From Pseudomonadota bacterium (GTDB taxonomy: Archaea; Thermoplasmatota; SW-10-69-26; JACQPN01; JAJPHT01), in contig JAJPHT010000030.1 of the NCBI GenBank assembly GCA_021325135.1, positions 62,001-126,000 on the forward strand: 64,000 bases of DNA, in the 5' to 3' direction. Position 1 is the first letter of the stretch. Each line of letters opens with the position of its first letter. The notes beneath the pieces were generated by a model, which saw only the letters and a list, made by a program, of their open reading frames with translations, made no database searches and was not told the origin of the DNA. Shown piece by piece: positions 25,906-42,574 of the stretch. The translations under genes were made by a program, and so were the position numbers.

Positions 25906-25930
25906 GTTTGCTCGCCCGCGGAAGGGGAAA

Positions 25931-27033: not shown

Positions 27034-27705
27034 ATGCCTCGCGACCCTCTCCGCGCCCCTACCATCTTCCCTGCACCACGACGGCCTCCCCCCAGACGCC
27101 CTCGAAAGGTCGTGGTTGGCCTGACCGGCCACCGGCGGAAGGACGAAGGTGAAAGATCACCGCGAGCCAAGCGCACGGCCAGAATCCGGGACGAGTTGCT
27201 GGACATCGTTGCGAAGCGGCCTGGCATTTCACTCACGGCGATCACGCGCGAGATGAACACCGCCTGGAGCGGAGTCTACCACCACCTCCGGGCCTTGGAG
27301 CGCGAGGGCAAGGTGAAGCGCGTCACGCACGGCCGCCGGCGCCTCCTCTATCCTATCAATGCGAACCAGCCAGATCCCGTAGCCGATGGGCTTCTCCATG
27401 GCGCCACCGCTCGCCTGATCGCCCAAGCCATTGCCGAGCACGAGCAACTCGACATCGCCCAACTCGAGATGGTGCTCGACTTGAAGCCACGCGTGGCGTA
27501 CTACCACGTCCGAAAACTACTCGCCGCGGCCCTCATCACCGCTGGATCCACCACAAGGTATCGAGAACTTCGCGCCACGCAACGGCTCCTCCAAGCCCTC
27601 GGGCGACCCGCGCAAGACCCGACCGGCTCACCCCCGCGACCCGATTCGGCGCATGGCCATGGGAATCCCAGTCGAATCGAAAGCCATGAGGCGCGAAAAG
27701 TTTGA
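27034..27705 (+). CDS. Tandem winged-helix transcriptional regulator
   Basis: A roughly 223-residue DNA-binding protein with two winged-helix domains in series. The first includes RDELLDIVAKRPGISLTAIT and SGVYHHLRALEREGKVKRV with wing HGRRRLLYPI. The second includes ATARLIAQAIAEHEQLDIAQ and KPRVAYYHVRKLLAAALI. The tail is Arg/Pro-rich. It is a clear paralogue of the gene at 41456. The frame is open back to a GTG at 26953, but the codons there are Pro-rich with poor third-position GC and overlap the operator. I use the only upstream ATG (27034); a GTG at 27112 after AAAGGTC is equally plausible. It probably binds the twin operators at 26909 and 27731, regulating itself and the 27866 cluster. 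Confidence 0.72.
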   Translation: MPRDPLRAPTIFPAPRRPPPRRPRKVVVGLTGHRRKDEGERSPRAKRTARIRDELLDIVAKRPGISLTAITREMNTAWSGVYHHLRALEREGKVKRVTHGRRRLLYPINANQPDPVADGLLHGATARLIAQAIAEHEQLDIAQLEMVLDLKPRVAYYHVRKLLAAALITAGSTTRYRELRATQRLLQALGRPAQDPTGSPPRPDSAHGHGNPSRIESHEARKV

Positions 27706-27865: not shown

Positions 27866-29827
27866 ATGAGCCCCCCGATCCGCACCCTCTCACTCCTCGT
27901 GGCCCTCGTCCTCTCCTTGCCTCTGGGTCACGCTGCAGGCGCCCCCTCGCGCCCCGCGCTGCTCCATGCTCCACCGGCCGGCCTCGCGAGCGTCGAGCCG
28001 CCCCCACTCGCCTGGGCACACGCGAATCCTCGCGATCCCCATACCTACTTCGACGCCACGATGAACCTCCTCAAGCCCGTCTTGCCCGGCATGGCGACGA
28101 GCACCTCCGCCGCACCAAACACGGAGGCCAACCGGGCCGCGCCGTGGCGTTACCCCTTCGCAGCCGGTGATCTGCGCGGCACAGGCGGCCAAGACCTCCT
28201 CGTCTTTGACGTCCTGCTAGACGAGAACTACACGTATCCGGCCACGCGCTTGGAGGCGCTCAGTGGCGCCACGGGTGCCACGCTCTGGACCCTTGCGATG
28301 GATCCGCCCAGTCCGGCGGGCGCCGCGTCGATTCCCGACGTGGATGGGGATGGCGGTCGCGACGTCATCCTGCTCACCTTCACCGTGGACGGCTCGCGCC
28401 CCGACTGCCCCCTCGGCGTCATGGCACCTCCTGATCCCACGGGGACGTTCAACACAGACTGGTACTGCTCCAGCGTGACCACCTACCACTGGACGCTCCA
28501 TGTCCTCAACGGCGCCACCGGCGCGCCCCTCTGGACCCGCACCTGGCAGGGCAAAGAGGGCTACACGACCTTGGGCTTCCCCTACGCGACGAACGCCAGC
28601 GTGGTTGTCGCTCCCCTCGTGCCCACGCAGGGCAGCGCTCCCGAGCTCGTCCTCGACTGGCTCGACGCGGCCGGGGAAGCTGTGCCCGACTATTCGCCCA
28701 CCACCGGCCTCATCACCAACCCCGTCCAAGTCCACGACGACATGCAGGCGAATCTCCTGCGCTTCACCAGCACGGCCCAACTCGTCGTGGGCGCCACCGG
28801 CGCGCCTGTCACGACGCAGGTTCTGCCCCGCAGCACAGCGGAGGCTCTCCTCGTCCCAGGGCCCCTCCTCGGGGGAGGGCAGGGGAGTCTCTTGTGGCTG
28901 AACTTCACCTACCCCCCCGGCGCCCAAGCCTGCGCCAACCTCGCCGAAGGCTCCACACCCCTCACGCCGCGCACCTGCGCGGGAGACGGCGCGAGCGCCA
29001 CGGCCACGCTCCTCGACGCCAGCAACATGGTCCCCCAGTGGAATACGAGCCTGGCTCCAGATGCGGCGTGGGTGGGCACGTTCGGGGACCTCGACGGGGA
29101 TGGCATCTCGGACCTCCTCGTCTTCCGCTTCCCACTGACCGACTCGCCCTCCTGGGAGGCCATCAGCGGCGCGACAGGAGCCCACCTCTGGAGCAGGCCC
29201 ATCGAGGCGTTCTTCCTCATACCAATCGGCAACGTGGATGACGGTCCCGGTCTTGACGTGGTCACCTTCGATACCGCGGCCACAAGCGGCGGGACCATTG
29301 GCCTCAACGTCACGCGCTGGGATGGCGCCACTGGAGCCAGGCTCCTGAGCACGACGCCCACGGCGAGGGCGGGCTGCGACGGCACGGGCTATGCGCTCGA
29401 CGTCGCCCCCGACGCCCTCCACGAGGGCGCTGGCATCGTCCTCGTCAGTTTCATCGCGGATTGCAACGGCACGCATACCAGCACGCTCCATGCCGAATCC
29501 GGCCGCAGCGGCCGCGCCCTCATCCAAGAGGAGAACCAGTCGGGGAGTCGGGTCCTCGTAGGCAACCTCCCAGCCGCGTGCGCTTGCGCGCCAAGCGCCT
29601 ACGAGTATGACTGGGAGCATGGGAGCGGCACGCTGCGCGCGCTCGACCTTGCGACCCAGACCACGCTTTGGACGCGCGCGCCCAGCCCGGGCAGCTACAT
29701 CCTGCCAGACCTCACCGCGGATGGCGCGCCTGACCTGGTTGAGGTCCAATACGACTCCCTCGCCGGGAGCACGCTGGTGGCGTTGAGCGGAGCCACCGGA
29801 ACGCCCGTCTGGACCAGCCCCCCGTGA
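27866..29827 (+). CDS. Secreted FG-GAP/VCBS-type beta-propeller
   Basis: A 653-residue exported protein, first of the long cluster. The signal peptide is SPPIRTLSLLVALVLSLPLGHAAG. The mature part alternates acidic calcium loops of integrin/VCBS type (DVDGDGGRDVILLTF, DLDGDGISDLLVFRF, DGAPDLVEV) with L-x-G-A-T-G-A-x-L-W segments as in PQQ-like blades, giving a propeller over most of its length. The sequence ends directly after the last LSGATGTPVW motif, with no anchor, so it is either released or held by a partner. GAGGTGA lies 6 nt before the ATG. It is probably expressed from the operator-promoter at 27731. It likely binds sugars or surface ligands, but nothing identifies which. Confidence 0.82.
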   Translation: MSPPIRTLSLLVALVLSLPLGHAAGAPSRPALLHAPPAGLASVEPPPLAWAHANPRDPHTYFDATMNLLKPVLPGMATSTSAAPNTEANRAAPWRYPFAAGDLRGTGGQDLLVFDVLLDENYTYPATRLEALSGATGATLWTLAMDPPSPAGAASIPDVDGDGGRDVILLTFTVDGSRPDCPLGVMAPPDPTGTFNTDWYCSSVTTYHWTLHVLNGATGAPLWTRTWQGKEGYTTLGFPYATNASVVVAPLVPTQGSAPELVLDWLDAAGEAVPDYSPTTGLITNPVQVHDDMQANLLRFTSTAQLVVGATGAPVTTQVLPRSTAEALLVPGPLLGGGQGSLLWLNFTYPPGAQACANLAEGSTPLTPRTCAGDGASATATLLDASNMVPQWNTSLAPDAAWVGTFGDLDGDGISDLLVFRFPLTDSPSWEAISGATGAHLWSRPIEAFFLIPIGNVDDGPGLDVVTFDTAATSGGTIGLNVTRWDGATGARLLSTTPTARAGCDGTGYALDVAPDALHEGAGIVLVSFIADCNGTHTSTLHAESGRSGRALIQEENQSGSRVLVGNLPAACACAPSAYEYDWEHGSGTLRALDLATQTTLWTRAPSPGSYILPDLTADGAPDLVEVQYDSLAGSTLVALSGATGTPVWTSPP

Positions 29828-29840
29828 GGAGACACAATCC

Positions 29841-30413
29841 ATGTCTCGCGCATTCCTCCCCCTCACGTGCATCCTAGCCCTCGCGGGCCTCCCCGTGTCA
29901 GTCCAAGCGCGCGAAGCAGGCTTCGACACGAGCTGGCAGCAAGCGGGACACGCCTGGACGTTCCTGGGCGTTGAGCAGCCCGGAGGCTTCGCGCGCGGCT
30001 TCGCCCCCGATCCGGACGCCTGGTTCAGCGACCACGCCACCGTCCTGGGCGTGAGTCCCACCCAGATCACGATCCAGTTTGAGGCATGCGCGTCCCTAAC
30101 GGCAGCCACGCCATCCAGCGTCGCGACGGTCACGTACGTGCGCCAGACGCGCCTCGATGCCACGGAGCAGGCCTCGTTCCTCTGGATCAACCCAAGCGAC
30201 GTGGCGATGGGTCACGCCCAACTGGGCGATCACGAGTACGTCCTGCTGATGGCGAACAGCCCCCTGGTGGAGTTCAGCGATGGGCACACGGACTACTGGT
30301 TCGACGCGCACACCGGCCTGCTTCACCACGTCACGGACGAATGGAACGGCGCAGCATCCACTCGAACGCCGGGTCCTTCCGCCTGCCCCAACGCCTCCAT
30401 GGAACACGCCTGA
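29841..30413 (+). CDS. Secreted hypothetical protein
   Basis: A 190-residue exported protein that I do not recognise. The signal peptide is SRAFLPLTCILALAGLPVSVQA. The mature domain is mixed: GHAWTFLGVEQPGG, a strand pair SVATVTYVRQTRLDATEQASFLWI, then HEYVLLMANSPLVEFSDGH and a DYWFDAHTGLLHHV motif. Two cysteines are far apart. It starts 13 nt after the propeller gene, with GAGGAG upstream, and is followed 8 nt later by the membrane TPR gene, so it is within the same transcript. Confidence 0.7.
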   Translation: MSRAFLPLTCILALAGLPVSVQAREAGFDTSWQQAGHAWTFLGVEQPGGFARGFAPDPDAWFSDHATVLGVSPTQITIQFEACASLTAATPSSVATVTYVRQTRLDATEQASFLWINPSDVAMGHAQLGDHEYVLLMANSPLVEFSDGHTDYWFDAHTGLLHHVTDEWNGAASTRTPGPSACPNASMEHA

Positions 30414-30421
30414 GGGACACG

Positions 30422-31267
30422 ATGGTCGAGATTGCGCCGGATACCCTCATCACGTACGCGCGCCTCGCCGCCGAGGACGAGGACCCCCAACGCGCCTTGG
30501 CCTACGTCACGGAAGCCCGACGCGTCGCCCCCACCAGCGTGGAAGCCGTCGAGTTCGAAGCCTTCATCCGCGGCCGCCTCCACGAATACGACCAAGCCTT
30601 CGATCTCTACGCCCAGGCCATGATGGCCGGCAGTGAGAACGCGCCCTTCAACGCGGCCTACCTCGCAGCCAGTCTCGAGGACACAGCGACCGCCAAGCGG
30701 TTCTTCCTTCGCTGCTTCGAAACGCGTCCGGCTGAAGCCGTGGCCGCCGTCCACGCGGACCCCTTCTTCGCCAGCCTCACCGAGCAATCCGACATCAAAG
30801 AAGCCCTCGACGCGGCCTCCCAACGCCTCGACGACCTTCACACGCCTCCGGGACCCCGAGTGAGGCCGGCGCACCCTCTTCCACCAGCGGCCCCGACTCT
30901 TCGCTCCGCCCCGGCTTGGCGCCTTCGCGCATGGCACCTGGGCTACTACCCGGCGTATCTCGAACTCCTCCTCGGCCTCGCCTTCCTGCTTCCCGCCCCC
31001 TTCGTCCAGCTCGGCTTCCTCTTTCTCACCGTCGGACTCGCACTTCTCGCCTCCGGCAGTTGGCTCATGTTGCTCCGCCTCAAGCGCCGACGCGCTTACA
31101 TCCACGACCTCCACGAAGCCTGGACCAAGTACCCCATCCTCCACGAGGAAGTCTTCTCGGCCCTCCTGAGCGCCCAAGCCGACTTGGGCCTGAGCGGCGA
31201 GGAGGCCATCAGCCTCGAGAAGATCGCGCTCGCGCACTTCCCCCAACGCGTCCAGGAGGAAGCATGA
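30422..31267 (+). CDS. TPR protein with C-terminal membrane hairpin
   Basis: A 281-residue protein. The N-terminal 130 residues form TPR helix pairs (ARLAAEDEDPQRALAYVTEARRVAPTS; GRLHEYDQAFDLYAQAMMAGS) closed by HADPFFASLTEQSDIKEAL. A Pro-rich linker leads to two TM helices (YPAYLELLLGLAFLLPAPFV and LGFLFLTVGLALLASGSWLM). A cytosolic tail contains EAWTKYPILHEEVFSALLSAQADLGLSGEEAI, which resembles the helix LQEELGLSATEAMGI in the protein at 39691. With no signal peptide, the TPR part should face the cytosol. It overlaps the next gene by 4 nt (ATGA). Probably a membrane-bound adaptor. Confidence 0.78.
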   Translation: MVEIAPDTLITYARLAAEDEDPQRALAYVTEARRVAPTSVEAVEFEAFIRGRLHEYDQAFDLYAQAMMAGSENAPFNAAYLAASLEDTATAKRFFLRCFETRPAEAVAAVHADPFFASLTEQSDIKEALDAASQRLDDLHTPPGPRVRPAHPLPPAAPTLRSAPAWRLRAWHLGYYPAYLELLLGLAFLLPAPFVQLGFLFLTVGLALLASGSWLMLLRLKRRRAYIHDLHEAWTKYPILHEEVFSALLSAQADLGLSGEEAISLEKIALAHFPQRVQEEA

Positions 31268-31761
31268 TCAACCGCTTCCTTCAGAGGCTGGGACGACATC
31301 TCGCGCGCCCCCTCAGCTTGGGAAGCGCGCGCCTTCCCCATGACCTGACCGTGGATCAGTACGCGGCTCTCTTGGACGTGGCCATGATGAGCCGCGAATT
31401 CGAGCGCGCCCTCGAACTCACCTCACTCCTGCGCGGACTCGCACCTGGAAGCGTGCATGTTGTCGAGACAGAAGCCTGCGCCCACGCTGAACTGGGTCAC
31501 ACGCAGGAAGCCTACCAGCTCTACAGGAAGGCCCACGAGGTCGGCAGCAAGGACGCCGCTTTCGCCGGGCTCTGTGTTGCCTTGGATCACGACGACATGG
31601 AGGCCGCCCGCGAATTCATCGCTTGCTACCTCACCGCCTCTCTTCCCCAAGAGGATCTCAGGGACATCGGAGATCCACGCGTCGAGAAGCTCACCCGCGA
31701 ATGGAGAGCCACACGCGTGGGGTGGTCACCCAAACCTACCCGCACAGAGGTGAAACCATGA
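31264..31761 (+). CDS. Small TPR protein
   Basis: A 165-residue cytosolic protein with two to three TPR-like helix pairs: DQYAALLDVAMMSREFERALELTSLL, then TEACAHAELGHTQEAYQLYRKAHEVG, then FAGLCVALDHDDMEAAREFI. It ends with the same type of capping segment as its paralogues (DIGDPRVEKLTREW). ATGA overlaps link it to the genes on both sides, which implies coupled translation. Likely partners are the other TPR and membrane proteins of the cluster; there is no enzymatic motif. Confidence 0.75.
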   Translation: MINRFLQRLGRHLARPLSLGSARLPHDLTVDQYAALLDVAMMSREFERALELTSLLRGLAPGSVHVVETEACAHAELGHTQEAYQLYRKAHEVGSKDAAFAGLCVALDHDDMEAAREFIACYLTASLPQEDLRDIGDPRVEKLTREWRATRVGWSPKPTRTEVKP

Positions 31762-32222
31762 CGACCGTGCCCCGTATTCCTCCTCTCGACGTAGTGTTCT
31801 TCATCGTGGGCGCGCTGCTCTTCGGGGGCGCGCTCACTGCCATTATCATCACTCAAGGCCCCGGAGCTTTCACTGGGCCCGCGCAGTCCGACACGATCCC
31901 CGTCGTCTCGCTGACGGTGGAGAACTTCACCTACACGGCGTTGAACGGGGTGCTCAACGCCACCGGCAGCGTCGTGAACCTGGACACGAAGCCCATCACG
32001 GCCGTCGTGGTCACGATCACCGGCTACGATGCGGGCCATCACGCCCGAGACCACGAGCTGCTGACCTTCAACGGCACACTCCAGCCCGGCGAACGCTGGC
32101 CCTTCAACGCTACCTTCTGTCCTCCCAAGGACACGGGTGAGATCGCCGGCTACGAGGCGGACGTGACTGGACGAACGGCCGATGCACCCGGGCTCACGCC
32201 GCACCGCCGGGAGGACGCATGA
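31758..32222 (+). CDS. Membrane-anchored FxLYD-like protein
   Basis: A 154-residue protein with one N-terminal TM helix (VVFFIVGALLFGGALTAIII) and an outside domain. That domain follows the FxLYD pattern: TGSVVNLDTKPITAVVVTITGYDAGHH, then LQPGERWPFNATF, a small Ig-like fold common in archaeal and bacterial surface proteins. GAGGTGA lies 5 nt before the ATG at 31758, which overlaps the previous stop (ATGA). The helix may serve as a signal anchor, as no cleavage site is clear. Function unknown. Confidence 0.7.
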   Translation: MTTVPRIPPLDVVFFIVGALLFGGALTAIIITQGPGAFTGPAQSDTIPVVSLTVENFTYTALNGVLNATGSVVNLDTKPITAVVVTITGYDAGHHARDHELLTFNGTLQPGERWPFNATFCPPKDTGEIAGYEADVTGRTADAPGLTPHRREDA

Positions 32223-32845
32223 TCCGCCCAGCACGCAAGGACAACCATCGGCGCGTGTTCGCCCTCATCGTACTGCTCACGATGGCCGGCTGCGTGAGCC
32301 CCTCGCCGCCATCGGAAGTGCCTGCGGCGCCGGCGCGCGCTGACCTTGCGGCGCAGCCTACTACGAGCGGCGCATCGACCATGCCGACGAACACCACGCA
32401 GTCAGCGCCCTTCGTGCTCCGGTACGACGGCCAGACCAACACGAGCGCGTTCGTCTGCGCGAACGCGACTGTCGGGGACGAGGTATGCCAATGGACCCCG
32501 ACGGACCCCGGCGGCTACCGCTCGCTGACGAACGGCTCCTACAACCACGCGCACCTCACGCTGACGTGGACCGCGACCTCGCCCGCGACGCAACAGCTCC
32601 ACCTGAGCCTCAACGACGTTGTACCCGATTCAGGGGACTGGAACACGCTCTGCCAAGCCAACGCGACGAGCTCCCCCTTCCCCTTCGACTGCGACCTGAA
32701 GGGCCACAACGCCACCTTCGACCTGCTCCTCTTCGTCCGCCCACCCAACTATCCCACAGGCAACCCGCCCTTGGGCGGATGGGTCGGCACAGACCAGCCG
32801 TTCCACGTCGAGATCACCCTCACAAACACGACCCGCCAAGTGTGA
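32219..32845 (+). CDS. Lipoprotein
   Basis: A 208-residue exported lipoprotein: the basic n-region RPARKDNHRR, hydrophobic FALIVLLTM and lipobox AGC (Cys about 25), followed by a Pro/Ala/Thr-rich linker. The outside domain (about 65-205) is beta-rich with paired cysteines (FVCANATVGDEVC and NTLCQANATSSPFPFDC) and many N-x-T sequons. I do not recognise the family. Joined to the previous gene by an ATGA overlap. Confidence 0.72.
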   Translation: MIRPARKDNHRRVFALIVLLTMAGCVSPSPPSEVPAAPARADLAAQPTTSGASTMPTNTTQSAPFVLRYDGQTNTSAFVCANATVGDEVCQWTPTDPGGYRSLTNGSYNHAHLTLTWTATSPATQQLHLSLNDVVPDSGDWNTLCQANATSSPFPFDCDLKGHNATFDLLLFVRPPNYPTGNPPLGGWVGTDQPFHVEITLTNTTRQV

Positions 32846-32850
32846 AACCC

Positions 32851-33762
32851 ATGGACGATCCCCTCCTCTCTGCCCTCGAAGTCGTCGGCCTTCTTGCCAC
32901 GTTCAGCCTCGCCGCGTGGCTCCTAGTCAAGCGCCACCCCGTCGCCCGCGCCCTTGGAGCCTCCGCGGTGCTCAATGGCCTGCTGACCATGGGCATCAGC
33001 CTTGGCGACTACGGATTCCCTGACTCGTGGAAGCGCGCCACTTGGATGTCGTGCTTCTTCGCCCCGCCCCTGCTCGTCTTGGCGTGGAAGTGGTTCCACT
33101 CCACCAGTGGAACGAAGGAGCCCTGGACGTCCCGGTTGGGCTTCTTCTACGGCCTCGCCTGGATCTTCACGGGCGTCTGCGTTGTTACGTTCCTCGCCGT
33201 GCCTTGCGCGTGGAGCTGCACGCAAGGCAACGCGGGCGTGACGGGGCCGCTGGTGCTCACTCTCTCCCTCACGACTCTCGTGCCGCTGGCCTGCGCGTTC
33301 CTGCTCGTGAGCGACGCGCGCCGGCCGACGCCCCTCCTGGGCGGGACCGCGGCCGTCGCGGGCGCCGTGATCCTGCTGCTGCGCGCGCTGGCCTACGAGG
33401 GCATCTTCATGGGCGCCCTCGCCATGGGCCACTGGCCCACCGGGGCTTATCTCGTTGCGTTCGATGCCATCAGCGTGACGCTGGGCCTCGCCGCGCTCGG
33501 CGGGCTCGCCTGGATCGCCAAGACCCAGTGGCAGGCGGGCCTCCGCCTGCGCGCGGCGACCATTCTCGTCTGGAGCGGGACCGCGCTCCTCGTGGGCGCC
33601 ATCTTCGGAGGCATCGCCGCGCCCCTCGTGGGCCCCTACGCGGGCTACCCCTACGTCTTGGGCGGGATCGGGCTGAGCCTCGCGCTGTTCATGGTGCTCC
33701 GCCGAGCCACCTTCCAGCCCGCGCGCTCGCAGGAGGCCACGCTGGGGGCCGAGCACGCATGA
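32851..33762 (+). CDS. Polytopic membrane protein, C-x3-C family (first of three paralogues)
   Basis: A 303-residue integral membrane protein with about nine TM helices. It shares layout with the genes at 33842 and 37058. Common features are a first helix ending in A-A-W-L with K/R following, and a loop after the fourth helix with a short C-x3-C motif (here VPCAWSC), probably outside and possibly a disulphide. No transporter, rhodopsin or kinase motif is visible. Start ATG at 32851; a GTG at 32842 three codons earlier is possible. It lies 5 nt after the lipoprotein gene. It may be a sensor or channel-like partner of the exported proteins, but this is inference. Confidence 0.72.
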   Translation: MDDPLLSALEVVGLLATFSLAAWLLVKRHPVARALGASAVLNGLLTMGISLGDYGFPDSWKRATWMSCFFAPPLLVLAWKWFHSTSGTKEPWTSRLGFFYGLAWIFTGVCVVTFLAVPCAWSCTQGNAGVTGPLVLTLSLTTLVPLACAFLLVSDARRPTPLLGGTAAVAGAVILLLRALAYEGIFMGALAMGHWPTGAYLVAFDAISVTLGLAALGGLAWIAKTQWQAGLRLRAATILVWSGTALLVGAIFGGIAAPLVGPYAGYPYVLGGIGLSLALFMVLRRATFQPARSQEATLGAEHA

Positions 33763-33845
33763 GGACCACCCAGGGGCCCAGCGGGAGACCTTCACCTTCG
33801 CAGGCGTTCTGTCGAACACGTCCATCCACGAGTGAATCCGCATGA
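33759..33845 (+). CDS. Possible bridging micro-ORF (28 residues)
   Basis: An ATG overlapping the stop of the upstream membrane gene (ATGA at 33759-33762) opens a 28-residue frame. It ends in a TGA overlapping the ATG of the next membrane gene (33842-33845). The peptide is polar (RTTQGPSGRPSPSQAFC at the start). The double ATGA linkage recurs at 37948-38088. It may keep ribosomes moving across the gap rather than make a functional peptide. Confidence 0.3.
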   Translation: MRTTQGPSGRPSPSQAFCRTRPSTSESA

Positions 33846-34768
33846 GCGATCCGATCATCACCTCATTCCAAGCCCTCGCCAGCGCTGCCAACTTCGCCCT
33901 TGCAGCATGGCTGATCCTCCGGCGCGGGCAGCCCTCCGCCCGTGCCGTCGGCTGGTTCTTCGCCATCTACGGCTTCACGTTCCTTAGCAGCGTCCTGGCC
34001 GCGCTTGGCGAGCGTGGCGCGTCGTCCTTCGTCGTGGTCGCCTTCTTTGGCGCCCTGCCTCTTTCCGTCGCCCTCTCCGCGACCTACCAGACGCCTCCCG
34101 ACGCCCCTGCGAGCTACCGTTGGTCCGTGGGCCACCGCTTCTGGTTCGTGCTGATGGCGGTCATCGCGTTCTTCTTCGCGGTCGCCGCCTGGGCAGACCC
34201 CTGTGTGTACCTCTGCGGGGCGAGCCCTGGCGGCCTGTTCATCTTCGCGTTCGGCCACACGGTCCTCTCGGTCTACGTCGTCTGGCTTCTCGTGCAAGAA
34301 GCGCGGGCGCCGCGGACCATGCAGAACGCCATCTTCGCGCTGGTTGCCGCTGCCACGCTCTTGATCCGCCTCTCGTCCACGGTCGCCTCCACGCTCACCG
34401 TCGTGGCGCACCACGGATGGCCTTCAGATTTCCAGCGAGAGATCGGCGACGCCACGATGATCTGCCTCGCCCTGGTCTCTGCCCTGCTGTTCTGGACCAT
34501 CCACAAGACGCTCCTCCTTGCCGGGCGCATCCGCACCTCGATGGGCATCCTGGCCGCGACCCTGCTCGCATCCTTCATCGGGAGCGTTGACGCGGGGATC
34601 GGGCTTGGCATCCCGGACTCCATCGCCACGTCCGCCTTCTTCGCGTTCTTGGCCGGCATCCCCATCGCCTTCGGCCTCGCCATCCGCAAGGCGCTCTCAA
34701 GCCCAGCAGGGACCCACGGATCATCTGCCGCGCACCCGACCAGTCCCGCCACGACCACCACCGAGTGA
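33842..34768 (+). CDS. Polytopic membrane protein, C-x3-C family (second paralogue)
   Basis: A 308-residue integral membrane protein with about nine TM helices and a short Ser/Thr/Pro-rich cytosolic tail (AGTHGSSAAHPTSPATTTTE). It matches the gene at 32851 in helix order, in the NFALAAWLILRR start and in the loop after helix four, where ADPCVYLC gives the C-x3-C motif. It is followed 6 nt later by the protease lipoprotein. Family function unknown. Confidence 0.72.
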   Translation: MSDPIITSFQALASAANFALAAWLILRRGQPSARAVGWFFAIYGFTFLSSVLAALGERGASSFVVVAFFGALPLSVALSATYQTPPDAPASYRWSVGHRFWFVLMAVIAFFFAVAAWADPCVYLCGASPGGLFIFAFGHTVLSVYVVWLLVQEARAPRTMQNAIFALVAAATLLIRLSSTVASTLTVVAHHGWPSDFQREIGDATMICLALVSALLFWTIHKTLLLAGRIRTSMGILAATLLASFIGSVDAGIGLGIPDSIATSAFFAFLAGIPIAFGLAIRKALSSPAGTHGSSAAHPTSPATTTTE

Positions 34769-34774
34769 AACGCC

Positions 34775-37051
34775 ATGAATCGCCCGTTCTCCTTCGCCGC
34801 CCTCCTCTGCCTAATGGCTTCCCCCGTCCTCGCTGGCTGCCTCTCCAACGCGCCCGCGGCCACGCTTGCCCCCTACCCGGAGGCCACGCTCACGCTCGAC
34901 CTGCCCATCCACATCGTCACGGTGGGCTTCCAGAACTTCGATGAAGCCTCGCTGCGCAAGAACCTGGCCGAGACGCCCATCTCGTTCGTCGAGGCGCAGC
35001 TCGAAACCACCGCGCACCTCGCGCCCGACGCGCTCCAGTACCACGTCACCTACGAGGTCCACCAGGCGCCGGCGAGCTTCGCGCACGACCTCTTCGCCTA
35101 CGCCGAGAGAATCGCCATGCCGGCCGCGCCGGACCCGTGGCTTGCCCAGCACGACCGCGAGGGGCTGCACCGCATTTGCCGGCCCGGCCATGCGCCGGGC
35201 CTGCCGGGCTCTCCCGTTCCCCTTCCCGTCGCGCCCCCGAGCGATCCCACCACGCCGGACTGCAAGGACGTGGAGCGCATCGACGCCAACAAGATCGAGG
35301 CCTGGATCGCGGAGCACCGCGACGCCGTCGGGCTGAACTTCTCGGCGCCCAGCTACACCATCTTCCTCCTTGACACCTGGGATACGCCGGGACTCCCCAA
35401 GGAGACCTATCACCAGTACGCCGTGCCCGACAACCAGACGCGGCCCGCGATGAGCACGCTGCGCGCCTGGGGCGGGGCGCACGACTTCGTGTTCCTCGAC
35501 GTGGGCGCGGCGCCCAACCAGATCGACTTCAAGCCCTGGGCGAACATGACGAAGGCGTTCACCCAGCGGCGCCTCGTGGACCTCACCGACCCGCCCATCT
35601 ACGAGGTCAAGAGCAACCAGACGTTCTACGCGAACCTGGGCCGCGACGTGAGCGACGCCGCGCACATATTGTGGGCCCGCCCGCCGCTCTACCGCTACGA
35701 GTACGCGGACGAGTACGACCTGCCCGTGACCGTCTTCATCGACTCCCAGGCCCACGGGAACCCTGGAAGCCTCGTGGGCAAGATCGACCCCTTGGACTAC
35801 GCGCGCCACACCGACCAGGCCGCCTACGTGCGCGCCTTCCAATCCCTCGTGCCCTGGGCGCGCGTCAATGCGAGCTTCCGTTTCGTCGTCCTGCCCAACG
35901 ATGATCCCGGCATGGCCGCGGCGTTGCAGGACGCCAAGAGCCGCTACGAGGGGCAGGACGTAAGCGTTGGCGTCCTGAAGCACTACCTCAACACGCACTG
36001 GAACGACTACGTGCCCAAGGGCCCGCCCGGCTCGCGCACGTACCCGACCTTCGCGTTCGTCCTCGATGCGCCCAGCGCCGTGACCTACGGCGAAGCCATG
36101 GGCGACGAGGTGGGCAACAGTTGGGGCGTGTACTTCAACATTCAAGACGTGATCGCCTGCAACCGCATCCCGCCCGAGTGCAACCCCAGCGAAGCGCCGC
36201 GCTTCGGCACCGAAGCCGCGTGGTGGGAGTGGTACAACGCGGTCCTCGCCCACGAGGGCGGCCACAGCTTCGGCCTCACCCACGCCCACGACACCGGCAG
36301 CCCCGACGACGTGGGCCTCGACTCCTACAACCTCAACTGGCTCTGGGACAGCACGGCCAGCGTCATGTCCTACCGCTATAACGGCGAGCAGTTCGACCAG
36401 TTCGACAAGGACGCCGTGCTGCGCGGCAACGCCGCCGAGATCGCCCGAGAAGTGCTTGCGAAGCCCGCGACCAAGACGGCCACGGTGCCCGCGCACAGCG
36501 CGGCGCTGCTCGCCCGAGGAAAAGCCGACCCCGCGCACACCCACGCGCATGAGGCGCTTGACCTGATCCAGCGCGGCGACTACCAGGGCGCGCTCGACCT
36601 CGCCCGCCAGGCGCGGCGCGAGGCCAGCGTGACGCAGCCCCCCGTCCTCGACGCGACGCCAGGCAACACGACCACGCTGGCCTTCACGTTCCCGGCCACG
36701 CCCGGCCTCCCGCCGCTGCCCAGCATCGTGCCCTCCGCACCCCTGCCGGACGCGCCCGATCTTGGCATGAGCGCCGCCGACTTCCCCATCAAGGTCCCCG
36801 AGGGGGCGAAGGCCATCCGGATCGAGTACGACGAGGACGCCGCGCCCTCGCACGCAGGCTGGGCCGCATCGCTCTACGTGACCAACGCGGAGCACGACAC
36901 CCTGACCCGCGTCTATGACGACGCCCACGGCGCCGTCGTCCTGGTGGGGCTCGACCACTGTGCATCAGGATGCACTGGGCACCTCGTCGCCTACTCCGGG
37001 GCCGCCACGAGCTACACCGTGAAACTGACCCCATACTTCGGCAGGGAGTGA
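34775..37051 (+). CDS. Metzincin-type zinc metalloprotease lipoprotein
   Basis: A 758-residue exported lipoprotein: signal SFAALLCLMASPVLAGC with the lipobox Cys about 21. The catalytic domain carries HEGGHSFGLTH (about residues 493-503), the H-E-x-x-H-x-x-G-x-x-H zinc motif of metzincins, with an SVMSY Met-turn about residue 531, the expected distance downstream. This predicts an active cell-surface peptidase. The roughly 450 residues before the motif form a large unrecognised domain. After it come a helical hairpin (AHEALDLIQRGDYQGALDLARQ) and a C-terminal beta domain of PPC type (GAKAIRIEYDED to TSYTVKLTPYF). GAGTGAAA precedes the ATG. Flanked by two C-x3-C membrane proteins. The substrate is unknown; giant surface proteins nearby are candidates. 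Confidence 0.85.
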   Translation: MNRPFSFAALLCLMASPVLAGCLSNAPAATLAPYPEATLTLDLPIHIVTVGFQNFDEASLRKNLAETPISFVEAQLETTAHLAPDALQYHVTYEVHQAPASFAHDLFAYAERIAMPAAPDPWLAQHDREGLHRICRPGHAPGLPGSPVPLPVAPPSDPTTPDCKDVERIDANKIEAWIAEHRDAVGLNFSAPSYTIFLLDTWDTPGLPKETYHQYAVPDNQTRPAMSTLRAWGGAHDFVFLDVGAAPNQIDFKPWANMTKAFTQRRLVDLTDPPIYEVKSNQTFYANLGRDVSDAAHILWARPPLYRYEYADEYDLPVTVFIDSQAHGNPGSLVGKIDPLDYARHTDQAAYVRAFQSLVPWARVNASFRFVVLPNDDPGMAAALQDAKSRYEGQDVSVGVLKHYLNTHWNDYVPKGPPGSRTYPTFAFVLDAPSAVTYGEAMGDEVGNSWGVYFNIQDVIACNRIPPECNPSEAPRFGTEAAWWEWYNAVLAHEGGHSFGLTHAHDTGSPDDVGLDSYNLNWLWDSTASVMSYRYNGEQFDQFDKDAVLRGNAAEIAREVLAKPATKTATVPAHSAALLARGKADPAHTHAHEALDLIQRGDYQGALDLARQARREASVTQPPVLDATPGNTTTLAFTFPATPGLPPLPSIVPSAPLPDAPDLGMSAADFPIKVPEGAKAIRIEYDEDAAPSHAGWAASLYVTNAEHDTLTRVYDDAHGAVVLVGLDHCASGCTGHLVAYSGAATSYTVKLTPYFGRE

Positions 37052-37057
37052 ACGGTC

Positions 37058-37951
37058 GTGATCTTCAACCTCTTTGACGCGCTCCTCGTCGCCGGACCTT
37101 TCGCAGCAGCCGCCTACCTTGCGTTGAAAAAGGAGCGCGCGGCCGTCATCTTGGCGCTCCTGTTCGTCCTCGATGGGACAACCGCCTTGGCGTGGCTCTT
37201 TTCGGACAGCTTCGGCATGCCGGTGAGCTGGACCGATCCGCTCCGCTTCGCCTACCTGCTGACCCCCCTCCCCGTGGGGCTGGCGTTCTTGTTGGTTCCC
37301 TCGAAGAATACCAGCAAGTTCCGGCGTGTCATGGACGGGGCACTTTTCCTCATCGCCATCGCCACCTCTGTTGCCGCCATTGTCCTGACGTTGCGGGCCG
37401 GCTGTCCCTGGACCTGCAACGCTGGGGGCGGACCTGCGTACGGCGGGGCATTCCTGGCGCAGATCGCCATGGCGCCCGCGTACCTCTTCGTGGGGGCGCG
37501 ATTCGGATGGAGCGGAAAGACGCGGCTCACCATCGCCAGCGTGCCCCTACTTCTGCGCGCCGCCCTCCGCGGGGGCATTCCCTTCGGAACCCTCCTGACG
37601 ACCGGGCACTGGAGCACGCTGCCCGTGATGGAGATGCCGTACTTGGGCCTCTTCATTGTCGGCCTCGTGGTCCTTCCCGTCGTCGGGTTCCGCTTCTGGT
37701 TCCTCTGGCTCCTGGCGATTCTGCTGGGCGCGGCCGAAGCGGGATTCGCCTCCGACTGGATCGGCATGCTCGGACGCCTGGCGTTCATGGCCTGGGCGGT
37801 TGCCACCCCCATCATCGTCGCGTTCCTCTGGAGGATGACGATCACGCCCGAGCGCCAAGAAGGAGGCCACTTCAGTTTCTACGCAAGTTGGAGGATCGAA
37901 TCCGCCGATCCTCCATCGGACGAATCTCCACAACATGCGGGAGCCGAATGA
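37058..37951 (+). CDS. Polytopic membrane protein, C-x3-C family (third paralogue)
   Basis: A 297-residue integral membrane protein with eight to nine TM helices. It is paralogous to the genes at 32851 and 33842, with the loop motif here reading GCPWTC. The C-terminal tail is acidic and Ser-rich (ESADPPSDESPQHAGAE), probably cytosolic. Start GTG at 37058, preceded by GGGAGTGA; no ATG occurs before the first helix. The stop overlaps the ATG of a 46-codon frame (ATGA). Confidence 0.7.
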   Translation: MIFNLFDALLVAGPFAAAAYLALKKERAAVILALLFVLDGTTALAWLFSDSFGMPVSWTDPLRFAYLLTPLPVGLAFLLVPSKNTSKFRRVMDGALFLIAIATSVAAIVLTLRAGCPWTCNAGGGPAYGGAFLAQIAMAPAYLFVGARFGWSGKTRLTIASVPLLLRAALRGGIPFGTLLTTGHWSTLPVMEMPYLGLFIVGLVVLPVVGFRFWFLWLLAILLGAAEAGFASDWIGMLGRLAFMAWAVATPIIVAFLWRMTITPERQEGGHFSFYASWRIESADPPSDESPQHAGAE

Positions 37952-38088
37952 GGACCGGAATAGGCGGAGCGCGAGACGATGAGCGACAAGTACGACACCG
38001 CGGAGAGAACTCGATGACGCCAGCGTTGCGCATGGATAGCGACGCCTTCGATGGCCGCGCCGTGAGCTCCGGGAGGGTGGCCCGATGA
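37948..38088 (+). CDS. Small bridging ORF (46 residues)
   Basis: It starts with ATGA overlapping the upstream stop and ends with TGA overlapping the ATG at 38085, filling the gap exactly. The peptide is hydrophilic and Arg-rich (RTGIGGARDDERQVRHRG at the start). It has no recognisable domain. The two-sided overlap, also seen at 33759-33845, argues for translation; whether the product matters is unknown. Confidence 0.4.
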   Translation: MRTGIGGARDDERQVRHRGENSMTPALRMDSDAFDGRAVSSGRVAR

Positions 38089-39686
38089 TCGAATCCTCAA
38101 GCACCACTGAGGGGTCCACTCAGACGGCGGCCGAACCGGGCTTCCTCGAAACGACGAGCCGCCCCCTCATGATCTCGGGAAGCTCTCTGATCGTCTCGTA
38201 CTTGGGTGCTCAAGCGCTTGTGCGCGCCCTGGATACAATCCGGGGCCACGCCGGTGCAGACCCCCTTCCGAGCGACGCCACAATCTGGGGGGTCGGCCTG
38301 GCGATCTGTGCCTTGGGCCTGCTGGCAGGCATGTGGGCCCGAACTCGGAGAGGGCTCCCCGAAATTGCTCCCCTGCGTGCGTACGAGACGAAGGACGGCC
38401 TCCTAATCGTCTTCTGGGACCTCATCCAGGCGGCCATCTTCAACTTCTTCTTCGCCTTCGCCGTGGGAGCCCTCGCCCTCATCGCCTGGAACATTCAACC
38501 TAGCCTGAGTCGCGCGTTCCTACAGCCTGTCCTCTGGCTAGGCTTGGGAATCATAATCCTCCCGCTGGGGGCTCTCGGGCTTCTCGGGGCACGGGCCCTC
38601 GCACACCGCGTTCTACCTCGCCCGCCGCCCGCCGCACCCAGCTTGGACTCACCCTCGAAGATGCTCCAGTTCCCCTTCGAGGCTCCCAAGGGGGAAACGA
38701 AGGGGGAGAGACATAGGCGCGAGCGGCGCCTGCTCGACCTCCTGGCCGCCCCGCACTTGGCCGAAGCGCCGAAGGAGATGAGCCAACGTGCCTTTCTCTG
38801 GGCGACGGCGCTTGCAGGAGCATGCGCCGCCGCGCTGATGTTCATGCCCGTCCTGCTCCCAGGCTGGGGGCTCTACACGGGCCTCGACGACATCGCGTTC
38901 AGCTTCGGGGGCGCCGGTCTCGCGCTGGGATGCTTCGTTGGCCCGTTCTTCCGCGTGCTGCTCCGCCAGCCCTCCCGTGCCTCCCTGGAAATCGCCTGGG
39001 GAACGGGCTTCCTGGCGGCAGGCCTGGCGAGCCTCATCAACCATGACACGCCGGCCTGTTGGATTCTCCTCGCCGCGGCCCTCGGCTTCTTCCTGAGGAC
39101 GCGGCGCGCTTTCTCCCACCAAGAACGTGTGGCCCGCGCGCGCATGGAGGGCGAGATGCTCGAGGCCAGCCGCCGACCTTGGCGCACCGAGCCCGACTCG
39201 CGGCGGTGGGTCTTTCTCCAAGCCGTGTGGATCCTCTGTGGCCTCGTGTTCTGCCTCATGGCCGCACTCTTGGCCACGCAGCCCCTGACCCCGCTGGGCC
39301 GGGTCAGCCTCGCCGCATTCGAGGGGGCCGGGGCGGGTTTCGCCTTGGGATGGGTATTCTTCTTGCTCAAGGGAATCCACCGCAATCGCGGCCCCGGGGC
39401 CAGCGCGGGCAACGTCTTCGCCGCCCTCGCCCTCTTGGGCGGTCTGGTCAGCTACCTTGTACTGATGACCCTTCCCGCCGTCCCCGCCTTCCGCACCTCG
39501 GCGCCTTTCGAAGACGTGCCAGTAGTCTTCGCCGCATTGGGAGGCCTCCTGAGCGTTCTGAGTCTGCGCGCTGCCCTGCGGGCGTGGGAGGGGAAGGTGA
39601 CGAGGCTCGGCCTTTGGCTGGCCCACGAGCACGCCGCTCCCACTTCATCAGGCCCTCTGAGCGCGCCCCCATCCTCGGAGAGCTGA
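38085..39686 (+). CDS. Twelve-TM membrane protein
   Basis: A 533-residue integral membrane protein with about twelve TM helices in two groups. The groups are separated by a basic cytosolic loop of about 60 residues (PPPAAPSLDSPSKMLQ, then KGETKGERHRRERRLLDLL). The overall look is transporter-like, but no family signature such as a Walker motif or conserved charged TM residue is evident. The N-terminal 30 residues are soluble and Ser/Thr-rich. It is fourth among the large membrane proteins of this cluster and is followed after 4 nt by the STAS-like membrane gene. Confidence 0.75.
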   Translation: MIESSSTTEGSTQTAAEPGFLETTSRPLMISGSSLIVSYLGAQALVRALDTIRGHAGADPLPSDATIWGVGLAICALGLLAGMWARTRRGLPEIAPLRAYETKDGLLIVFWDLIQAAIFNFFFAFAVGALALIAWNIQPSLSRAFLQPVLWLGLGIIILPLGALGLLGARALAHRVLPRPPPAAPSLDSPSKMLQFPFEAPKGETKGERHRRERRLLDLLAAPHLAEAPKEMSQRAFLWATALAGACAAALMFMPVLLPGWGLYTGLDDIAFSFGGAGLALGCFVGPFFRVLLRQPSRASLEIAWGTGFLAAGLASLINHDTPACWILLAAALGFFLRTRRAFSHQERVARARMEGEMLEASRRPWRTEPDSRRWVFLQAVWILCGLVFCLMAALLATQPLTPLGRVSLAAFEGAGAGFALGWVFFLLKGIHRNRGPGASAGNVFAALALLGGLVSYLVLMTLPAVPAFRTSAPFEDVPVVFAALGGLLSVLSLRAALRAWEGKVTRLGLWLAHEHAAPTSSGPLSAPPSSES

Positions 39687-39690
39687 CACC

Positions 39691-40866
39691 ATGGCCATCT
39701 CGCCGACGGGACGCTTGCCTGGACCTGGTTCTTCATGCTCCCGCAGGGAGGAACCTGACGTGGCACATCGGCGCCGCTGGAGGTGGCCATCTCCCCGCCT
39801 CTTGCACCACGGCTACTGGCCCCACTACCTCATCCTGGCAGTAGCTCTCGTCCTGCTCATCGTCGCCATCGCGGTCTCGCAGGTTGCTGTCCTGGTGGCG
39901 GCGCTCTTCGCGGGCGCACTCGGTGTCGCGTTGTGCGCGCCCGGCTTGAGGAGACGCCACCAGTTCCGGCGCGCAGCAGCGAAGGCGTTCGAGAACTCCA
40001 TGCCCGCGGGCGTGGCCTTGCCGAAGCTCTTCGAGCTCCAAGAAGAACTCGGCCTAAGCGCCACCGAGGCCATGGGCATCATGAACGACGAAGCCGCCCG
40101 CCGCGCCCCCCCACCCCAGCCTCGCGACAAGCGGCGTTTCGTCCCACCTCGCCCCCCGCCAGACAGCCCGGAGTGGCGCTGCGCAAACGAACTGGCCCAG
40201 TGGGACCCAACGACGAAACTCCTCGTGATCCACGCCAAGCCCCTCACTCAGTTCAACAAAGAGGAGGCGGTGAAGATCATCGACGCCGCCCGCGCGCTCT
40301 TGGGCAAGGCGCGTGGCTACACGCTGCTCTTCGATGGTGCCGCGCACCCTGACTTGTACGATGCGACGACAGAGACGATGGAGTTCTGGTTTCCCCTCTT
40401 CCGGACCATCCGGCGGCCCAAGCACTTCGTCGCCATCAACGTCCCGCGCAATGCCTCCTTCATCGTCGAGGCGTTCGGGCGTGCCGCCCAGCGCCATGCA
40501 TACCTCTTCCGCAACCGACGGATGGCCCTGACTTGGCCAGAGCAACCATTGGAGGTCCGCATCCAGGGGGCGCGGCTCTGTTGGAGTGACATGGAAATCC
40601 GACGCTTCCGCATCCGAACCATCACCCCGGGCACGCTGATCCTCCTACCTGGGCTGGTCGGTCTCGTCCTACGTGGGTGGCTGTGGACCTCCAACAAGCC
40701 CCTGGCCATCGCCCGGGCGCTGGGGTACCTCTTCGTGCTCGTCGGTGGAGTCCTCATCGCCGTGGGCTTCTTCACGTTCCCCTGGGAGGACGAAGAGGAG
40801 CGGGCGGCGCGCCTGGCGCTGGCATCCAACGGAACAGACGACCTGAGCCAAGGGGATCAGGCATGA
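39691..40866 (+). CDS. Membrane protein with STAS/SpoIIAA-like cytosolic domain
   Basis: A 391-residue protein: an Arg-rich N-terminus, two TM helices (YLILAVALVLLIVAIAVSQ and VLVAALFAGALGVALCA), a cytosolic middle, then two more TM helices (TLILLPGLVGLVLRGWLW; LGYLFVLVGGVLIAVGFF) and an acidic tail. The middle (about 165-290) resembles the SpoIIAA/STAS-like fold: KLLVIHAKPLTQFNKEEAVKIIDAARALL, a core strand GYTLLFDGAA, PKHFVAINVP and a closing YLFRNRRMALTW. STAS domains usually mediate protein contacts that respond to nucleotides or phosphorylation. A helix LQEELGLSATEAMGI echoes the C-terminus of the TPR protein at 30422. Overlaps the next gene by ATGA. Confidence 0.6.
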   Translation: MAISPTGRLPGPGSSCSRREEPDVAHRRRWRWPSPRLLHHGYWPHYLILAVALVLLIVAIAVSQVAVLVAALFAGALGVALCAPGLRRRHQFRRAAAKAFENSMPAGVALPKLFELQEELGLSATEAMGIMNDEAARRAPPPQPRDKRRFVPPRPPPDSPEWRCANELAQWDPTTKLLVIHAKPLTQFNKEEAVKIIDAARALLGKARGYTLLFDGAAHPDLYDATTETMEFWFPLFRTIRRPKHFVAINVPRNASFIVEAFGRAAQRHAYLFRNRRMALTWPEQPLEVRIQGARLCWSDMEIRRFRIRTITPGTLILLPGLVGLVLRGWLWTSNKPLAIARALGYLFVLVGGVLIAVGFFTFPWEDEEERAARLALASNGTDDLSQGDQA

Positions 40867-41393
40867 TCCCCAGCTTCCCCCCTCGACTCCAAATGCTCCT
40901 GGACAAGCTCTTCCCTGTCGTTCAGAAGCCCTTGTCCGTGGAGGACCTCTGCACGCTCTATGAGTTCCATGTCGAGCGCGAAGATTACGCGGCTGCCTTG
41001 CGCTGGATCCAGAGTGCCAGGAAACTTGCGCCCACGAGCGTGGACCTGATGGAACGCGAGGCGGACGTGCTTGCCTTCATGGGCAAGACCGACGAGGCCA
41101 CGGTCCTCTGGCAACTGGCGCATGCGGCTGGAAGCGACAGCGCGGCCTACCACGCCGCGCTTCACGCTGAACGGGCCCACGACGTTGGCAGGCTCAAGGA
41201 ATTCCTGCTGTTGGCCATCGAGCGCGATCCGGATCCTGACGAAGTGCTCCTTTTCATCGGTGCATTGGATCCTTCCCTTCACGTTGTTGCGCGGGACCCC
41301 GAGATCAAGCGGGCGATACGCAGGGCTCGGAAGTGGCCGCCTATGCCCGTGCAGGGGAGGCGCATCGAGCCGCCTGCTCAAGATTCCCTGTAG
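40863..41393 (+). CDS. Small TPR protein
   Basis: A 176-residue cytosolic protein, paralogue of the genes at 31264 and 42002. TPR-like helix pairs: EDLCTLYEFHVEREDYAAALRW, ESARKLAPTS-type turn (ARKLAPTSVDLMEREADVLA), GKTDEATVLWQLAHAAGSDSA. The same capping segment follows (ARDPEIKRAIRRA). It is ATGA-coupled to the STAS-like membrane gene, suggesting that the two products meet at the inner face of the membrane. Confidence 0.75.
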   Translation: MIPSFPPRLQMLLDKLFPVVQKPLSVEDLCTLYEFHVEREDYAAALRWIQSARKLAPTSVDLMEREADVLAFMGKTDEATVLWQLAHAAGSDSAAYHAALHAERAHDVGRLKEFLLLAIERDPDPDEVLLFIGALDPSLHVVARDPEIKRAIRRARKWPPMPVQGRRIEPPAQDSL

Positions 41394-41455
41394 GGGGCGT
41401 AGTGTCTCGTGTGCGTCGCCATGGTTTGTTCCCGATTGCTTGGTGAGGGGTTGCG

Positions 41456-42001
41456 TTGAAGCCGCGGGCTGAGAAACCGATGCGAGCCAAGGAGAGCAAG
41501 AAACTCCCCTGGACTCCGAAGCGAGGGCGCTCGAAGGTTCCTGCGAAGCTCTTGCGAATCATCCAGGAGCGGCCAGGGATACCAGTGACCGAGCTTGAGG
41601 GCCGCCTTGGCATCGGAACGGGCACCATGCGCCATCACCTGCAGACGCTCCAGCGGGCGGGCAAGCTGCACTTCGTCCGACAGGGACGCAGGCTCCTCAT
41701 CTACCCCCCCGGGGCCGGAAGCGACGCTCTCGCCGAAGGACTCCTCAGGGGAGCCACCAGCCGTGCAGTAGCAACCACCATTCGAGAGCATCCGGGTGGA
41801 GACGTCGCTTCCCTCCACCGACTCCTGGGACTGAGCGAGCGAGTCGTCTACTATCATTTGCAACGTCTCATGGAAGCGGGATTGGTCGCATCATCCGGCG
41901 AAAACCGTCTGCGCGATCTATCCGCGACCGGCAAGCTCGAAGCCCTCCTCGCGCGGCTCGAACCGAGTCCCACTGACGAAGTCTCAAGGGAGACGGAGTG
42001 A
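41456..42001 (+). CDS. Tandem winged-helix transcriptional regulator
   Basis: A 181-residue DNA-binding protein with two winged helices: KLLRIIQERPGIPVTELEGR with GTMRHHLQTLQRAGKLHFV and wing RQGRRLLIYPP; then ATSRAVATTIREHPGGDVAS with ERVVYYHLQRLMEAGLV. It aligns with the regulator at 27034 throughout, including the GLLRGATSR/GLLHGATAR linker. Start TTG at 41456 with GGTGAG 7 nt upstream; ATG 41480 is the alternative. It is followed without a gap by the TPR gene at 42002. The two regulators at the ends of the cluster may compete for, or form heterodimers on, the twin operators. Confidence 0.75.
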   Translation: MKPRAEKPMRAKESKKLPWTPKRGRSKVPAKLLRIIQERPGIPVTELEGRLGIGTGTMRHHLQTLQRAGKLHFVRQGRRLLIYPPGAGSDALAEGLLRGATSRAVATTIREHPGGDVASLHRLLGLSERVVYYHLQRLMEAGLVASSGENRLRDLSATGKLEALLARLEPSPTDEVSRETE

Positions 42002-42574
42002 GTGCAAGCCCCAACTGTTGACCGGATAACCGGCTGGCGATATCGGGGCCACGCGCGAACCGTGGCGCTACGTGCCACGTGGAACCGCGCTTTGGCGCTG
42101 GTCAAAATCAGGCGCGCAAGGGCCAAGGACTGGGGGAAGCTCGCGGACGCCGCGGGCAACTGGCACGATTTGGCCAATTGCCTCGCATATATCGAGGAGG
42201 CCCGCCGCTTGGCTCCCCAAGATTCCGAGTATGTGATGACCGAGGCCTGGGCTCGCACGGAGCTCGGAATCGCGACGCAGGACGATGCACAGATGGAGCG
42301 CGCCTGGTCCTTGTGGCGCGAGGCTGACGCGCTGGGCAATCTCGAAGCGGCATACGAGGCCGCCATCTACGCGGCTCAACAGAAGGACGCAAAACACGCA
42401 GCCGAGTTTCTCTGCCTCGCCATTCGGGACAGGCCCGATGTTGTAACCCGCCTCCTCGCCGCTGACGTGGACGAGCCTATCGTTGTCTTCCTCAGACAGG
42501 TTGCCTGGAACCCAGAAGTCCGGGCCGCGCTTCACGAAGCCCGAGAAAAGACAAGCACGCCTGATGGAGCGTGA
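42002..42574 (+). CDS. Small TPR protein
   Basis: A 190-residue cytosolic TPR/SEL1-like protein: NWHDLANCLAYIEEARRLAPQ, SEYVMTEAWARTELGIATQD, ERAWSLWREADALGNLEAAYEA, then a capping helix (WNPEVRAALHEAREK). Start GTG at 42002 directly follows the regulator's TGA, with GGAG inside the upstream gene's end. It is the fourth free TPR paralogue in the cluster and probably its last intact gene; the next gene is truncated. Confidence 0.72.
   Translation: MQAPTVDRITGWRYRGHARTVALRATWNRALALVKIRRARAKDWGKLADAAGNWHDLANCLAYIEEARRLAPQDSEYVMTEAWARTELGIATQDDAQMERAWSLWREADALGNLEAAYEAAIYAAQQKDAKHAAEFLCLAIRDRPDVVTRLLAADVDEPIVVFLRQVAWNPEVRAALHEAREKTSTPDGA

What the first reader, a model, noticed from the sequence alone, without database searches (positions are those of the whole stretch)
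27866..42574. A 17-gene membrane-spanning cluster with no recognised counterpart
The genes are on one strand with 4-bp overlaps or gaps mostly under 15 nt: exported propeller, exported unknown, membrane-TPR, TPR, FxLYD-like, lipoprotein, three paralogous polytopic proteins, metzincin lipoprotein, 12-TM protein, STAS-like membrane protein, TPR, winged-helix regulator, TPR. The set has outside binding and proteolysis, membrane-spanning parts, cytosolic adaptors and its own regulator, as expected for a signalling or surface-remodelling apparatus. I know of no named system with this composition; the functional reading is inference.
Basis: partly seen in the sequence, partly recalled or inferred. 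Interest (0 to 1): 0.78.

Follow-up and report, generated by a model that had tools for sequence, protein, structure and literature searches.

The report
Mobile-element copy of archaeal receptor operon
The gene block is a large, mobile-DNA-borne version of a small surface-receptor and gene-regulator module that this archaeon's family carries in many copies; the block itself was found nowhere else, but its control unit is shared and can be tested.

Summary
The gene block is real: 15 confident same-strand genes at 27866-42574, plus two tiny coupled ORFs. It matches no named system (Pfam, NCBIfam, PADLOC). As a 15-gene set it is not conserved: in the only same-family genome held the metzincin stands alone, and g11, g12 and the polytopic proteins have no convincing relative in 30-60 relatives.

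It has a receptor-like protein (beta-rich ectodomain, one TM, cytosolic TPR), a small secreted protein and a double winged-helix regulator. I found eleven divergent receptor/secreted pairs in two genera, eight with the regulator. One chromosomal paralogue fuses ectodomain and TM directly to the double winged helix, so the module is best read as a split transmembrane transcription switch.

The block looks like an extension of it: four more TPR paralogues and a duplicated regulator (sister to the first), plus surface-binding, protease and membrane parts. It lies in an atypical segment of about 150 kb with integrase-, ParB- and methylase-like genes (GC3 0.83-0.90 versus 0.97), beside an 8,774-aa exported protein. 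Signal and target genes are unknown.

The parts
24298..26004 (-). receptor-like protein: exported beta-rich ectodomain, one TM, cytosolic TPR domain (REC)
   Evidence: A6 family; AlphaFold2 pLDDT mostly above 85 over ectodomain and TPR; TPR fold match
26250..26678 (+). small secreted protein (SEC), Fn3-like by eye
   Evidence: A8 family; 10 of 11 hits in two genomes lie next to a REC gene
26953..27705 (+). double winged-helix regulator (likely start internal to this ORF)
   Evidence: Pfam HTH_HVO_0163_N 3.2e-9; A7 family
27866..29827 (+). exported FG-GAP-type propeller
   Evidence: Pfam FG-GAP_3 and Beta-prop_FAM234A_B above cut-off
29841..30413 (+). exported protein of unknown family
   Evidence: signal-like N-terminus; no Pfam
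30422..31267 (+). TPR domain + 2 TM + LGLSxxEA domain
   Evidence: TPR paralogue; C-half 36% identical to 39691-40866
31264..31761 (+). TPR protein
   Evidence: paralogue in A4
31758..32222 (+). FxLYD-domain protein with N-terminal TM
   Evidence: NCBIfam NF038353 2.7e-7; 47% relative over 98 aa on contig C15
32219..32845 (+). lipoprotein
   Evidence: lipobox-like N-terminus; 30% relative beside the REC/SEC locus on contig C45
32851..33762 (+). polytopic protein with C-x3-C (paralogue 1)
   Evidence: A1/A11
33759..33845 (+). possible 28-aa ORF overlapping both neighbours
   Evidence: reading frame only
33842..34768 (+). polytopic protein with C-x3-C (paralogue 2)
   Evidence: A1/A11
34775..37051 (+). 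metzincin-type metalloprotease lipoprotein
   Evidence: HEGGHSFGLTHAHD and MSYR; zinc-motif residues kept in five relatives; 44% orthologue in G001
37058..37951 (+). polytopic protein with C-x3-C (paralogue 3)
   Evidence: A1/A11
37948..38088 (+). possible 46-aa ORF overlapping both neighbours
   Evidence: reading frame only
38085..39686 (+). orphan polytopic protein (8 strong TM segments)
   Evidence: hydropathy; no convincing homologue in 30 relatives
39691..40866 (+). TM + LGLSxxEA domain + alpha/beta domain (STAS-like unproven) + C-terminal TM
40863..41393 (+). TPR protein
   Evidence: paralogue in A4
41480..42001 (+). second double winged-helix regulator, sister of 26953-27705
   Evidence: Pfam 2.9e-13; 38% identity; tree support 90/91
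42002..42574 (+). TPR protein
   Evidence: paralogue in A4

Best explanation
The block is the extended, mobile-segment-borne form of a recurrent archaeal transmembrane signalling module. Shown: the module's three gene families, their divergent order and recurrence, and a paralogue in which ectodomain, TM and double winged helix are one chain. Inferred: the ectodomain of 24298-26004 binds an outside ligand or surface state, perhaps with the small secreted protein; the change crosses the single TM to the cytosolic TPR domain, which holds or releases the double winged-helix regulator encoded divergently, so that the module behaves like a one-component receptor cut in two. Inferred for the extension: the extra TPR proteins and the duplicated regulator add further adaptor/regulator pairs; the propeller, FxLYD protein, lipoprotein and metzincin act outside, binding and trimming surface proteins; the polytopic C-x3-C proteins and the two LGLSxxEA membrane proteins are the membrane partners. 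A plausible output is surface remodelling, possibly including the neighbouring 8,774-aa exported protein; no target has been shown.
For: REC/SEC/winged-helix triads in the own genome (window, C19, C7, C11, C33) and in G001 (C87, C50, C29), always divergent. SEC profile: 7 of 8 hits in the own genome and 3 of 3 in G001 lie next to a REC gene; three of these (C45, C42, G001:C29) were not used to build the profile. Fusion of REC ectodomain+TM (1e-14) to double winged helix (1.8e-30) in L095:7846-9453, with a small exported gene divergent to it; other TM-winged-helix proteins in the same genome. The TPR domain is confidently modelled. The block holds four more TPR paralogues and a second regulator that is sister to the first. 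The C19 and G001:C87 modules share a neighbouring operon.
Against: No interaction, DNA-binding or expression data. Most forks in the regulator tree are unresolved. Not every REC copy has a SEC or a regulator (C7:4.9k, C36), and one SEC (C15) has no REC beside it. The profiles were built from the first seven triads, so the scores of those copies are not independent evidence. A 160-nt gap separates the regulator 26953-27705 from the block, so one transcript is not shown. The ectodomain match of the fusion, although significant, is distant.
Confidence: 0.55

Rival explanations
1. The block is mainly an effector/surface apparatus of a mobile element (adhesion, cell-cell interaction or transfer), and the receptor module beside it is an unrelated neighbour.
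For: Segment of about 150 kb with distinct GC3 (0.83-0.90 against 0.967), one dominant strand, an integrase-like gene at one end, ParB and methylases. Two giant exported proteins flank the block. Large unclassified membrane proteins at C46:131-147k.
Against: The TPR and winged-helix families of the receptor module are repeated inside the block, and the two regulators are sisters, which a chance neighbour would not explain. No conjugation ATPase, capsid, portal or terminase family was seen among the families listed for 74 scanned segment proteins (PHROG list cut at 25 of 40).
Confidence: 0.25
2. Extracellular protease system: the metzincin with the three C-x3-C polytopic proteins forms a protease/processing unit, and the other genes are its regulators.
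For: The only polytopic paralogue found outside the block (C26) is next to an exported trypsin-like protease, so the family is seen twice beside an exported protease.
Against: Only two loci; in G001 the metzincin stands alone and no polytopic homologue was found in that genome.
Confidence: 0.12
3. STAS/partner-switch signalling: 39691-40866 is a membrane STAS protein switched by TPR partners, stressosome-like.
For: Order of strands and helices in a low-confidence model is compatible.
Against: No STAS profile hit; no fold match; no kinase or phosphatase domain found in the block.
Confidence: 0.05

Closest known systems
ArnR/ArnR1, membrane-bound one-component regulators of Sulfolobus acidocaldarius (PMC6396743)
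   Same: archaeal HTH transcription factors anchored in the membrane that control surface structures
   Different: ArnR has an N-terminal HTH, HAMP and sensory domains and two C-terminal TM segments on one chain; here the ectodomain is N-terminal, there is one TM, and in the window the regulator is a separate protein beside a TPR receptor
ArsR/HVO_0163-type winged-helix regulators
   Same: the regulators match winged-helix profiles; PDB matches are mostly ArsR-type proteins
   Different: tandem double winged helix genetically tied to a receptor-like gene; fused to TM ectodomains in some paralogues
Metzincins (serralysin, reprolysin, myroilysin)
   Same: HEXXHXXGXXH and Met-turn
   Different: long N-terminal region of its own, lipoprotein anchor, few archaeal relatives found
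Large archaeal extrachromosomal elements (Borgs, PMC9605863; Methanoperedens plasmids, PMC9674854)
   Same: large, mostly hypothetical genes; a dominant coding strand in this segment
   Different: joined to chromosome-like DNA in the contig, about 150 kb, another lineage; no gene-level relationship was tested

Membership tests
membrane-bound one-component regulator (ArnR-like) | HTH DNA-binding domain | tested here: met
   Pfam and PDB profile matches
membrane-bound one-component regulator (ArnR-like) | sensor, TM and HTH on one polypeptide | tested here: not met
   split in the window and the other modules; met only by paralogues such as L095:7846-9453
membrane-bound one-component regulator (ArnR-like) | binds promoters of surface-structure genes | not testable with these tools
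   needs binding assays
two-component system | histidine kinase and receiver domains | tested here: not met
   no such Pfam hit in the block or module
type IV pilus / secretion cluster | secretion ATPase, platform protein, prepilin | tested here: not met
   no such family in the block
known anti-phage defence system | PADLOC model hits | tested here: not met
   no hit for ten proteins
metzincin protease | HEXXHXXGXXH zinc motif and Met-turn | tested here: met
metzincin protease | proteolytic activity | not testable with these tools
   needs an assay
STAS domain protein (39691-40866) | STAS profile or fold | tested here: inconclusive
   no profile hit; low-confidence model
integrated mobile element | integrase at an end with a compositional border | tested here: inconclusive
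   integrase-like gene at C46:154270-155862, four family copies in the genome, GC step near 157k; no Pfam hit for the integrase and no repeats longer than 15 nt between the ends examined
conjugative element or virus | VirB4/VirD4, or capsid/portal/terminase | tested here: not met
   none among the Pfam families of 74 proteins or the 25 of 40 PHROG families shown

The most novel reading that the evidence does not exclude
A previously undescribed archaeal class of split transmembrane transcription switches (ectodomain-TM-TPR plus secreted partner plus double winged helix), present in many copies per genome, which a large mobile element has captured and expanded into a surface-remodelling operon.
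Probability: 0.4. Interest if true: 0.75.

Novelty: new variant of a known kind. Interest (0 to 1): 0.52.

Why it matters
How archaea carry signals across the membrane to transcription factors without kinases is poorly known. A repeated module with a fused paralogue as a guide makes a concrete, testable receptor-to-regulator pairing, and its capture by an apparently mobile segment would show such elements carrying surface-sensing programmes. The same data also show that the 15-gene block itself should not be called a conserved system.

Tried and rejected
Named-system matches by Pfam, NCBIfam and PADLOC: none. Recurrence of the block in relatives: not found. STAS identity by fold: uninformative because the single-sequence model is poor. 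Ectodomain fold by Foldseek in PDB and BFVD: only the TPR part gave credible matches. Viral collection for the segment's integrase, two large membrane proteins and 39691-40866: no relatives. The weak second hit of 38085-39686 on C47 falls in a soluble protein, so it was rejected. Named relatives through a genome scan with the metzincin: none; with ribosomal protein P0: Euryarchaeota and Thermoplasmata MAGs at 40-47% as best hits. Attachment repeats for the segment: none convincing. My home-made gene caller misses some real genes of the block, so gene calls outside the window are approximate.

Full report
The window is G000:C46:62001-126000 of a 3.77-Mb genome in 51 contigs. Its ribosomal protein P0 has its nearest named relatives among Euryarchaeota and Thermoplasmata MAGs at 40-47% identity, so it is a deep archaeal lineage, probably within Thermoplasmatota; only one other genome of its family (G001) and five more of its class turned up among the relatives searched.

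Fifteen genes run on the + strand from 27866 to 42574, mostly coupled by 4-nt overlaps or gaps under 15 nt. Domain labels were checked one by one: propeller, FxLYD, TPR, metzincin and winged helix stand; '12 TM' and 'STAS-like' are not confirmed.

The block is not a conserved system in the genomes searched. The metzincin has a 44% orthologue in G001, but it lies alone between unrelated genes. The proteins 38085-39686 and 39691-40866 and the polytopic trio have no convincing homologue in 30-60 relatives. Single parts have relatives elsewhere in the own genome: a polytopic paralogue on C26 next to an exported trypsin-like protease, an FxLYD relative on C15 and a lipoprotein relative on C45 beside a receptor locus.

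What does recur was found through the TPR proteins. A profile of the block's TPR genes plus 24298-26004 hits further loci in G000 and G001. Most of these carry the same arrangement: a receptor-like gene (REC: exported ectodomain, one TM, cytosolic TPR), and divergent from it a small secreted protein (SEC) and a double winged-helix regulator. In the window this is 24298-26004(-), 26250-26678(+), 26953-27705(+), ending 160 nt before the reported block. The divergent REC/SEC pair is seen at the window, C19 (twice), C7, C11, C33, C45 and C42 in G000 and at C87, C50 and C29 in G001, eleven in all, of which eight have a matching regulator. In a separate whole-genome search the SEC profile gave 8 hits in G000 and 3 in G001; 10 of these 11 lie beside a REC gene (the exception is C15; the short C33 SEC was not picked up in that search). 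With some twelve REC genes in 3.8 Mb, a random gene would fall that close perhaps 1% of the time (my arithmetic). Seven of the triads went into the profiles, so only C45, C42 and G001:C29 are independent confirmations.

The mechanism rests on a fused paralogue. L095:7846-9453 joins the REC ectodomain and TM (profile positions 3-343, E 1e-14) directly to the double winged helix (E 1.8e-30), with a small exported gene divergent to it. Other proteins of this genome also join a signal-like or TM region to the same winged-helix family. I therefore infer that in the split form the TPR domain does the work of the direct fusion, controlling the separate regulator. The TPR domain is confidently modelled and matches consensus TPR structures; the ectodomain is a mostly confident long-stranded beta structure without a credible fold match. 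The TPR-to-regulator step is inference, not shown.

The block looks like an outgrowth of the module: it holds four more TPR paralogues, a second regulator that is sister to the first (38% identity, support 90/91), and a duplicated membrane domain shared by 30422-31267 and 39691-40866. Propeller, FxLYD protein, lipoprotein and metzincin are predicted to act outside.

The genomic setting matters. From about C46:9k to 157k the contig has lower GC (mostly 0.63-0.69 against 0.70-0.75), a dominant strand and lower GC3 (0.83-0.90 against 0.967), then changes to ordinary chromosomal genes. The window's REC and regulators have GC3 0.69-0.70; the REC genes of the C19, C7:58k, C11 and C33 triads have 0.956-0.977. 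The segment carries ParB-like, methylase, ligase and XPG-type nuclease genes and, near its right border, an integrase-like gene with three more copies in this genome, two of them (C7, C45) within about 10 kb of REC genes. Its large membrane proteins at 131-147k match no informative family, and the one searched was found in no relative. I read this as an integrated element of unknown type; assembly chimerism cannot be excluded, and the integrase call rests on sequence look and copy number, not on a profile.

Compared with known systems it works most like archaeal membrane-bound one-component regulators such as ArnR, but it is split, has the opposite layout and includes a secreted partner. It is not a two-component, pilus, secretion or PADLOC-listed defence system by the tests run.

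Noticed in passing
window 42676-64000 (-), continuing to C46:131000: One open frame of 8,774 aa with a signal-like N-terminus, ending 101 nt from the end of the block and convergent with it.
   Followed up: partly
window 9190-20073 (-): Second giant exported protein, 3,627 aa; shares stretches with a 1,671-aa protein at C46:163-5178.
   Followed up: no
C46:9k-157k (L064, L065, L066, L061, window, L062, L063): About 150 kb of atypical DNA, mostly one strand, with ParB, several DNA methylases, a DNA ligase, an XPG-type nuclease and unclassified large membrane proteins.
   Followed up: partly
L058:6645-8661 (G000 C26): Exported trypsin-like protease directly before a paralogue of the C-x3-C polytopic proteins, in low-GC3 DNA near integrase-like genes.
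   Followed up: partly
L095:7846-9453, L098:9697-11256, L056:3116-4597: Exported or TM proteins carrying the double winged helix at the C-terminus; the first is a natural fusion of the receptor ectodomain and the regulator.
   Followed up: partly
window 21624-23009 and L054:10633-12129 (C7): Exported protein shared (39%) between the window segment and the C7 locus that also has the integrase-like gene and a REC copy.
   Followed up: no
L051:5305-17694 and L059:34-5986: A shared operon (looks MoxR/DUF58-type by eye) neighbours the receptor module in both G000 (C19) and G001 (C87), suggesting that this copy is ancestral in the family.
   Followed up: partly
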